DNA of 64,000 nucleotides from Geomonas oryzisoli (GTDB taxonomy: Bacteria; Desulfobacterota; Desulfuromonadia; Geobacterales; Geobacteraceae). The stretch is taken from assembly GCF_018986915.1 (NCBI RefSeq), contig NZ_CP076723.1, positions 3,257,501 through 3,321,500 of the forward strand, written 5' to 3'. Below the pieces are notes generated by a model that saw nothing but the letters and a program-made list of their open reading frames with translations, did not search any database and had not been told where the DNA came from. Of this stretch, positions 50,324 through 51,919 are shown one piece after another (the first letter of the stretch is position 1; each line of letters begins with the position of its first letter). A program made the translations under genes and the position numbers.

Positions 50324-51484
50324 TTAGGCCAGAAGCCGACCGGCTACGACGACGAAAAACGCGCTCGCGAGGGCACCGGCCATGAGCGGCAGTCCCAGGC
50401 GCATCTCCTTCTTCACGCCGGATTTCGAGGTGTACGTGGTGCAGCCGGTGAAGTTGAGGGTGTAGAAGGAGGAGACGGCCGGTAGCGCCAGGAAGGCCGC
50501 TACGGTCGCCGCCCACCCCCACCCCGCCCCGGCGAGCAGGTAGACAAGCGCGCAGTAGAGCACCCCGGCGAAGGCCCCCTTGACCGCGAAGCTCCTGGTG
50601 GGCAGCAGCGGCAGCAGCAGCGGACCGACGGCGACCCCGGTGCAGACCGCCCCCAGGAAGGCAAGCGCCGCTGCGGCCGCGGCATCTGCGCCCCAGACGA
50701 GTCTCGCCACGAGGTAGATGAGCGCCGCCACCGGGAGCACCGGCTTGGCCGCCAGCACCAGTTCCACCGGGATCAGCACCATGCGGTCATACCAGTTGAA
50801 GCGGAGCTCGCGCATGGCGGGGGTGCTCGCCCCCCCCTGGTCCAAAAAGGCGGGGAGATCGGCCGCGCGCATGGTGGCGTAGACGACGTCGAAGCCGCTT
50901 CTTTGCTTCACCCGGTGCGCCGACACACCGGCGGCGCCCAGGATGGGAAGGATGAGCCGCCGGTGGCTGACCACCTGGGCGAGCCCGCTCTTTTCGATGC
51001 GGCGCACCAGCTCGCCGGTGCCGAAGGTCCCCTTCCCCGCCGCGCACCATACGTTGATTCCGTAGGTCTCCAGGACCAAAAGCCAGACGTTCCTGCCGCA
51101 AAGCGCCCGCCGCACGATGTCGTAGCTCATCTTGTAGTTGGCGGTCACGACGACCGGAGCCTCCGAGCCGGGAGAGCCGATGGCGTAGAGGCCGGGGGGA
51201 ACCATGAAGGTCATCCGGTTGATACCCCAGCGCGCCAGGCAGGCGCCCAGGTGATCGGCAAGGGTCAGGGTGCCGTCGACCTGGGGCGCGCGGCCGCTGC
51301 CGGCCGGTATCCAGCGCTGGAAGCCCGGGACGTTTTCGCTGATCTCTCCGCCGCCGGCGGAGGTGGGGGGACCTCAGCAGGGGGGAGCATCCGGGTTGGC
51401 GCCTTCCTGCGGCGCCGCCATGGAGGATACCGGCTGCTTCACCTCGATCTTCTTGAACCGGCGCATCCTGATCTCTTCGCTCAT
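50324..51484 (-). CDS. hgcA: Mercury methyltransferase HgcA with in-frame UGA (candidate selenoprotein)
   Basis: The HgcA core is certain: NVWCAAGKGTFGT (residues 144-, cap-helix Cys147 that ligates the corrinoid Co) and a C-terminal five-helix membrane domain (~235-386). The frame runs unbroken upstream of ATG 51214 for 53 codons (ISENVPGFQRWIPAGSG... is typical HgcA N-terminal sequence) with no ATG, GTG or TTG, up to UGA 51376-51374. Beyond it the same frame continues to ATG 51484, which has GGGAGG 6-7 nt upstream and overlaps the arsR stop (ATGA). UGA (codon 37) follows Cys36 and precedes GPP. With UGA read as Sec the protein has 386 aa. Alternatives are a nonsense mutation or a CTG start at 51268/51250/51238. 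Confidence 0.85.
51346..51362 (-). promoter_or_regulatory. Candidate bacterial SECIS hairpin in hgcA
   Basis: Eleven nt after the UGA: CTCCGCC-GGC-GGCGGAG, a 7-bp GC stem. The loop starts 19 nt after UGA and begins with G, inside the usual bacterial SECIS window (loop 16-37 nt downstream, G among the first loop bases). The small loop and GC-rich context mean it could be chance. Confidence 0.5.
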
Positions 51485-51882
51485 GGTTCTCCCTCCCCGG
51501 GGTCGCGCCCCTCTAGATCCGATTTTTTGGATTTCACCGCCTCGGGACAGCAGGCAAGCCCCCTTCTCTCCCGCAGCCGCCGCAGGTCCTCCCGTGCCGT
51601 ATCCGTGACCAGGAGGAAGTTGCGCAAGACCGGAACCAGGAATTGCTGCACCGGCTCCAGGGAGGCGTTGATCGAGTAGTGGTTCCAGGCCCCGCCCCTT
51701 CTCCCCTTGACCCACCCTGCGCTTTTCAGGATGGCGAGCTGACGGGAGACGGTGGACTGGGGGAGCTTGAGGACGGCGACGAGGTCGCAGACGCAGAGCT
51801 CCTCGGCCTGAAGCAAGAGCGCCAACAAGCGCAGCCTGGTCTGGTCGTCCAGGGACTGAAACAGCAGGGCGATGTTTTCCAT
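51481..51882 (-). CDS. ArsR-family metal-sensing repressor upstream of hgcAB
   Basis: 133 aa from ATG 51882. Winged-helix (DLVAVLKLPQSTVSRQLAILKSAGWVKGRRGG) with the alpha3 metal site ELCVCDL (Cys30, Cys32) of ArsR/SmtB sensors and an extra C-terminal vicinal pair (LACCPEA). ArsR genes next to hgcAB are known in other methylators. Stop overlaps the hgcA start (ATGA). Upstream ATG 51894 lies inside the predicted promoter, so 51882 is preferred; the mRNA would be leaderless or nearly so. Confidence 0.9.
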   Translation of the reverse strand: MENIALLFQSLDDQTRLRLLALLLQAEELCVCDLVAVLKLPQSTVSRQLAILKSAGWVKGRRGGAWNHYSINASLEPVQQFLVPVLRNFLLVTDTAREDLRRLRERRGLACCPEAVKSKKSDLEGRDPGEGEP

Positions 51883-51889
51883 GCGGGGA

Positions 51890-51919
51890 AACATATCCGC
51901 AAAAGCGGATACGGTCAAG
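51890..51919 (-). promoter_or_regulatory. arsR-hgcAB promoter with embedded operator
   Basis: On the minus strand TTGACC (-35), exactly 17 bp, TATGTT (-10, 51895-51890). The spacer is occupied by the perfect inverted repeat TATCCGC-TTTT-GCGGATA (51911-51894). An ArsR dimer bound there would block polymerase, which predicts autorepression and induction by thiophilic metal. Confidence 0.7.

What the first reader, a model, noticed from the sequence alone, without database searches (positions are those of the whole stretch)
50324..51484. HgcA reading frame contains an in-frame Cys-UGA: candidate selenocysteine mercury methyltransferase
Seen directly: from ATG 51484 (strong RBS, ATGA overlap with arsR) the frame gives 36 codons ending ...PPC, then UGA, then 53 codons of HgcA-like N-terminus without any ATG/GTG/TTG, then the certain HgcA core. 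A 7-bp hairpin with a G-first loop lies 11 nt after the UGA. If UGA is Sec, HgcA carries an N-terminal Cys-Sec pair. Selenols bind Hg(II) even more tightly than thiols, so this could be a mercury capture site on the methylating enzyme. To my knowledge HgcA has not been described as a selenoprotein.
Basis: partly seen in the sequence, partly recalled or inferred. Interest (0 to 1): 0.92.

Follow-up and report, generated by a model that had tools for sequence, protein, structure and literature searches.

The report
Selenocysteine in mercury-methylating protein HgcA
The gene for the mercury-methylating enzyme HgcA very probably uses a UGA codon to insert selenocysteine beside a cysteine, but HgcA has already been listed in print as a selenoprotein, so this is a well-supported further example whose biochemical role is still untested.

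Summary
The ORF from ATG 51484 (minus strand) runs 36 codons to Cys, then UGA (51376-51374), then 53 codons with no ATG/GTG/TTG, then the HgcA core. The UGA is almost certainly selenocysteine. All 40 hgcA-bearing genomes of the family among 48 searched carry it exactly 109 codons before the cap-helix Cys. Of 197 distinct loci surveyed, 126 have it; close relatives without it read CCGP. A bSECIS-like hairpin follows; it is stronger than synonymous recoding predicts in UGA forms but not in Cys-Cys forms, and it covaries. The genome has selA, selB, selD and tRNA-Sec. Mercury capture is plausible but unproven: the Cys-Sec pair lies in a disordered tail, and HgcB beside it ends in its own Cys-Cys tail. 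Verdict: real, already known in kind.

The parts
50324..51484 (-). hgcA, read through one in-frame UGA: 386 aa, Cys36-Sec37
   Evidence: NF040863 432.5 bits, cut-off 275, profile 2-323 of 325 on residues 67-383
51374..51376 (-). in-frame TGA read as selenocysteine (codon 37), next to Cys36
   Evidence: same place in 40 of 40 hgcA-bearing genomes of the family
51346..51362 (-). bSECIS-like hairpin: stem 51362-51356 / 51352-51346, loop GGC 51355-51353, 11 nt after the UGA
   Evidence: comparative support
51377..51484 (-). 36-codon upstream half of the N-terminal tail
   Evidence: Substitutions at codon positions 1/2/3 against five congeners 34/27/60; residues 1-39 have pLDDT under 50
51044..51046 (-). 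codon of cap-helix Cys147 (taken as Cys93 of ND132, proposed lower cobalt ligand)
   Evidence: Position; role from passages of PMC11588087
50020..50313 (-). hgcB, 97-aa ferredoxin ending GGCCG
   Evidence: NF040864 126.1 bits, cut-off 99; sequence
51481..51918 (-). arsR/smtB-type metalloregulator, stop overlaps the hgcA start (ATGA)
   Evidence: NF033788 79.9 bits, cut-off 55

Best explanation
This is an hgcA gene whose in-frame UGA is translated as selenocysteine, directed by a bSECIS hairpin that begins 11 nt downstream and by the genome's own SelA/SelB/SelD/tRNA-Sec. The product carries a Cys36-Sec37 pair on a flexible N-terminal tail ahead of the corrinoid-binding domain. Shown computationally: the frame, conservation across the UGA, Cys/Sec exchange, the hairpin, the machinery. 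Inferred (about 0.45): the pair binds Hg(II) or CH3Hg+ as a thiolate-selenolate ligand and passes it to or from the cobalamin site, together with the Cys-Cys at the end of HgcB's flexible C-terminal tail. The confidence below is for selenocysteine decoding only.
For: UGA exactly 109 codons before the cap-helix Cys in 40 of 40 hgcA-bearing family genomes, 19 of 19 in the genus; within 105-115 codons in 126 of 197 distinct loci after setting L199 aside. Relatives with Cys at that column: L009, L012, L018, L027, L058, L157 read CCGP. UGA forms have better hairpins than their own synonymous recodings (126 loci, mean -12.0 against -8.6 kcal/mol, mean z -1.45); 41 Cys-Cys forms do not (-7.7 against -8.3, z +0.26). 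The Geobacteraceae-type stem pairs in 520 of 546 cells (maximum of 500 shuffles 491) with C-G/T-A exchanges; six Cys forms pair 22 of 42, the shuffle mean being 22.2. selA 600.7, selB 393.5, selD 360.6 bits (with an in-frame TGA), tRNA-Sec 74.9 bits. selA over cut-off in 38 of 38 UGA-form genomes tried. Confident strands 55-61 and 64-69 lie between the UGA and the first later ATG, codon 91. For the role: the tail is disordered; HgcB ends in Cys-Cys in 87 of 126 UGA loci; losing both HgcB tail Cys cut activity by 95% (passage of PMC7305189).
Against: No protein or 75Se data. The hairpin in this sequence alone is not exceptional (z -0.30), and singly only 39% of UGA loci reach p 0.05, median p 0.10. 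The pair shuffles do not allow for relatedness. selA is also in 51 of 57 genomes whose hgcA is not a UGA form, so it is permissive, not diagnostic. The lack of a start codon after the UGA is not general: 109 of 126 UGA loci have ATG/GTG/TTG within 40 codons after it. For the role: ND132 HgcA, if its Cys93 is Cys147 here, starts at about residue 55 here and lacks this tail as annotated, yet E. coli lysates that hold it methylate Hg; 26 of 197 loci have neither UGA nor Cys-Cys in that stretch, 27 with L199.
Confidence: 0.94

Rival explanations
1. UGA is a real stop: a 36-aa leader peptide is followed by HgcA started at an internal codon, probably ATG 51214 (codon 91), or by an inactive gene.
For: UGA normally stops; ATG codons exist at 91 and 94; mechanical ORF listing gives a 296-aa ORF from 51214; 109 of 126 UGA loci have a possible start within 40 codons after the UGA.
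Against: A start at codon 91 removes residues matched by NF040863 from 67 on, the confident strands 55-69 and helix 75-85. It leaves the conserved CUGP across the UGA, the Cys-form relatives and the UGA-specific hairpin unexplained.
Confidence: 0.04
2. Sequencing error or recent nonsense mutation.
For: None found.
Against: Same UGA at the same place in 18 other genomes of the genus and 21 more of the family.
Confidence: 0.01
3. Sec is decoded, but its role is redox or regulatory rather than mercury capture: for example reduction of cobalamin or of a disulfide in HgcB, or selenium-dependent control of the HgcA level through the early UGA. (This rival concerns the role only and is not exclusive of the decoding.)
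For: Vicinal Cys-Sec pairs are classical redox centres (established knowledge); the UGA is early (codon 37), so low selenium would abort the protein before the core.
Against: Nothing decisive. Cys directly before Sec in 117 of 126 UGA loci (CUG 102, CUP 14, CUA 1) and Cys-Cys in others fit a two-coordinate soft-metal site as well as a redox pair.
Confidence: 0.45

Closest known systems
HgcA selenoprotein form, NF040863 with motif CU (Haft and Gwadz 2023, J Bacteriol 205:e0025922; tabulated in PMC13188914)
   Same: Same family and same Cys-Sec motif in the review's table; the review says Haft and colleagues sought UGA-containing extensions of unexpectedly truncated proteins (passages).
   Different: No difference found, but the 2023 paper is not held, so species and SECIS could not be compared.
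COG1456 'CO dehydrogenase/acetyl-CoA synthase gamma subunit' selenoprotein entry of PMC9312934 (2022)
   Same: The 2026 review's HgcA row carries the same description in brackets, so it appears to be the same protein.
   Different: Listed in 2022 without motif or mention of mercury (one passage). Reference 61 of the 2026 review for HgcA, PMC2398784, has no acetyl-CoA or COG1456 term in its main text.
HgcB selenoprotein form, NF040864 with motif GVGU
   Same: Partner protein, also listed as a selenoprotein in PMC13188914.
   Different: HgcB in this window reads GVGC and ends CCG; it is not a Sec form.
HgcA of Pseudodesulfovibrio mercurii ND132
   Same: Corrinoid domain, cap-helix Cys and five-helix membrane domain (papers; model).
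   Different: By the numbering Cys93 against Cys147 its annotated start falls near residue 55 here, without a Cys-Sec tail (inference; its gene was not read).

Membership tests
HgcA (NF040863) | score over curated cut-off | tested here: met
   432.5 bits against 275
HgcA (NF040863) | cap-helix motif NVWCAAGK with Cys | tested here: met
   NVWCAAGK, Cys147; these columns are invariant in the 41 sequences of alignment A1, i.e. the window and 40 of the 75 loci
HgcA (NF040863) | adjacent hgcB ferredoxin | tested here: met
   50313-50020, NF040864 126.1 bits
HgcA (NF040863) | Hg methylation activity | not testable with these tools
   needs culture or enzyme assay
bacterial selenoprotein | in-frame UGA with coding sequence on both sides | tested here: met
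bacterial selenoprotein | Cys at the UGA column in homologues | tested here: met
   L009, L012, L018, L027, L058, L157 read CCGP; 41 of 197 loci have Cys-Cys somewhere in the stretch
bacterial selenoprotein | bSECIS hairpin just downstream of UGA | tested here: met
   comparative tests; energy of this sequence alone inconclusive; bSECISearch itself was not run
bacterial selenoprotein | selA, selB, selC, selD in the genome | tested here: met
bacterial selenoprotein | selenium in the protein | not testable with these tools
   needs 75Se labelling or mass spectrometry

The most novel reading that the evidence does not exclude
HgcA of many methylators of this phylum carries a second, overlooked mercury site: a Cys-Sec (or Cys-Cys) pair on a disordered N-terminal tail that works with HgcB's C-terminal Cys-Cys tail to load Hg(II) onto, or take CH3Hg+ off, the corrinoid. 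If so, methylation in these organisms would depend on selenium supply, and enzymology done with a tail-less HgcA misses this step.
Probability: 0.35. Interest if true: 0.75.

Novelty: already known. Interest (0 to 1): 0.33.

Why it matters
HgcAB makes the neurotoxin methylmercury. If HgcA of this whole family of iron reducers is a selenoenzyme, selenium supply could limit or tune methylation directly, and gene callers that stop at UGA misplace the start of hgcA. The protein evidence is still missing.

Tried and rejected
Energy of the 57 nt from the TGA alone: not informative, so comparison with synonymous recodings and with Cys forms was used instead. selA as a discriminator: 38 of 38 UGA-form genomes against 51 of 57 others, too common in the phylum to separate them; the UGA-form genomes G181 and G331 were left out of the 38, and the 57 are not all of the others and include G397, whose hgcA was not classified. 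Two nearly complete genomes without selA (G423, G329) have an HgcA without the UGA, as expected, but they are only two. Solved structures: only the corrinoid protein of CO dehydrogenase matched (2h9a and 4c1n), nothing with the tail. No tRNA beside selA; tRNA-Sec lies elsewhere. Earliest prediction: PMC2398784 main text does not name the protein.

Rows dropped before the counts: six loci in which no cap-helix motif was found (L170, L175, L180, L204, L224, L246), L177 (wrong frame) and 20 duplicates; two truncated and one masked locus are inside the 197. Of the 114 genomes over the cut-off, five with partial genes (G066, G129, G183, G198, G290) were not fetched; matches under the cut-off were not examined there. 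L199 has a TGA in range but a start codon after it and was not counted as Sec, giving 126; L061, L062, L200 and L210 have a TGA nearer than 105 codons and were not counted either. In the tree (189 rows) Sec against not-Sec changes at least 15 times and Sec against Cys-Cys 12; this was a FastTree run without tests of branches, and the Cys-Cys label means any CC in a 50-residue stretch, so the numbers are rough. The survey is uneven: the 75 loci were found with this protein as query and are UGA forms in 65 of 75, whereas the phylum draw gives 43 of 111.

Full report
Observation. The minus strand from 51484 to 50324 gives ATG, 36 codons ending PPC, TGA, then an open frame to the next stop at codon 387. 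The ATG overlaps the stop of an ArsR-type regulator as ATGA. Codons 38-90 hold no ATG/GTG/TTG; the first later ATG is codon 91. The protein matches NF040863 (HgcA) with 432.5 bits over profile positions 2-323, residues 67-383, and is followed by hgcB (NF040864, 126.1 bits). The hairpin described (7 bp, loop GGC, 11 nt after the TGA) is there.

Is the UGA decoded? A search of species genomes found 75 related loci, 65 of them with a TGA at this place. In the same family 40 of 48 genomes have an HgcA match, and all 40 have TGA exactly 109 codons before the cap-helix Cys; the genus alone gives 19 of 19. A phylum-wide draw had any match in 296 of 395 genomes and 114 over the HgcA cut-off (stretches); of 111 loci from it 43 are UGA forms, 36 have Cys-Cys, 14 Cys but no Cys-Cys, 8 no Cys, and 10 could not be used or were set aside. 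Together 224 loci gave 197 distinct usable ones: 127 with TGA 105-115 codons before the Cys (106 at exactly 109; one, L199, looks like an ordinary stop, leaving 126), 41 with Cys-Cys in the stretch and no such TGA, 15 with Cys but no Cys-Cys, 11 with no Cys, 2 truncated, 1 masked. The residue before the UGA is Cys in 117 of the 126 (CUG 102, CUP 14, CUA 1). Six relatives close enough to align directly (L009, L012, L018, L027, L058, L157) read CCGP, with Cys at the UGA column. Of the 126, 124 have ATG, GTG or TTG in the open frame before the UGA; but 109 of the 126 also have one within 40 codons after it, so the lack of a downstream start in this window is not general.

SECIS. For each locus the best hairpin with its loop 14-37 nt after the codon was compared with 60 synonymous recodings using the gene's own codons. 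UGA forms (126): mean -12.0 kcal/mol against -8.6, mean z -1.45, median p 0.10, 39% at p 0.05 or less. Cys-Cys forms (41): -7.7 against -8.3, z +0.26, 2%. In 79 sequences (78 distinct) chosen as the Geobacteraceae-type CUG loci by locus number, the stem at positions 11-17/21-27 pairs in 520 of 546 cells, above each of 500 shuffles (mean 482.5, maximum 491) and each slide by up to 3 (413 at most), with C-G, T-A and A-T pairs replacing each other at the two outer positions; the innermost pair forms in 62 of 78. In six Cys-form relatives it pairs 22 of 42, as shuffled (22.2). The shuffles do not allow for relatedness. The other 47 UGA loci have a hairpin in a similar place with different letters, in 7 of them exactly GGCTCAGGTGAGCC. 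Against this, the window's own 57 nt are not unusually stable for their composition (z -0.30).

Machinery. The genome (one contig, 4.85 Mb) has selA (600.7 bits), selB (393.5), selD (360.6, with one in-frame TGA) and tRNA-Sec (74.9, gathering score 47). selA is over its cut-off in 38 of 38 UGA-form genomes tried and in 51 of 57 others; this is consistent but weak, because the phylum is rich in selA.

Structure and role. A model from 41 sequences (mean pLDDT 83.4) has residues 1-39 under pLDDT 50, confident strands at 55-61 and 64-69, an alternating strand-helix domain and then five long helices, in line with the corrinoid and membrane domains described for HgcA. Starting at codon 91 would delete the confident strands. 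So Cys36-Sec37 sits on a flexible tail in front of the corrinoid domain. In ND132 the pair Cys94-Cys95 of HgcB is likewise at the end of a disordered tail; changing both to Ala cut activity by 95%, and the authors propose that it delivers Hg(II) to the corrinoid (PMC7305189, passages). HgcB ends with Cys-Cys in 87 of 126 UGA loci; 18 had no HgcB in reach, 5 were cut, 16 were other or unclear. The upstream 36 codons show third-position bias (34/27/60 substitutions against five congeners). I infer that the Cys-Sec pair is a second soft-metal site that shares Hg handling with the HgcB tail; a redox or regulatory role is about as likely. E. coli lysates with ND132 HgcAB methylate Hg (PMC11588087, passages), and the ND132 numbering puts the start of that HgcA near residue 55 here, so such a tail is not needed by every HgcA.

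What is known. PMC13188914 (2026 review; [quoted passage not shown] known here from its citation only). PMC11588087 (2024, passages) states that some hgcA and hgcB homologues may be selenoproteins. PMC9312934 (2022, one passage) already lists a COG1456 'CO dehydrogenase/acetyl-CoA synthase gamma subunit' selenoprotein, a description that the later review gives in brackets for HgcA. Paper searches run; in their listings and the passages opened I saw no test of selenium in HgcA and no tail-deletion experiment, which is a statement about those only.

Verdict. A correct observation and very probably a correct decoding, already known as a family-level prediction; the functional idea is open and testable.

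Noticed in passing
window 51484-51377 (residues 1-36): The 16 other genus- or family-level HgcA tails printed (some from the same genome twice) all carry an additional Cys about 11-13 residues before the Cys of the Cys-Sec pair (as in SSCAP); the window's protein has SSMAAP there and lacks it.
   Followed up: partly
L086 (G000:C1:3776436-3777353): The genome's selD contains one in-frame TGA, so SelD is probably itself a selenoprotein.
   Followed up: no
L132, L136, L144, L146, L173, L209, L215: The identical hairpin GGCTCAGGTGAGCC follows the UGA in seven loci from seven different families and goes with an A-Q-V-S stretch in the protein: the SECIS may dictate the amino-acid sequence there.
   Followed up: partly
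L171, L173, L178, L185, L214: Some HgcA have the UGA without a Cys just before it, as TUC, GUC or GUS, so the order of the pair is not fixed.
   Followed up: no
L223, L189, L201 downstream of hgcA: HgcB tails end in C followed by TGA (CGCU, GCU) with a few more open codons; could be Sec or simply Cys then stop.
   Followed up: no
window 55006-51989: Long multi-CXXCH, cytochrome-like ORF directly upstream of arsR-hgcA-hgcB on the same strand (weak TIGR03508 match under its cut-off).
   Followed up: no
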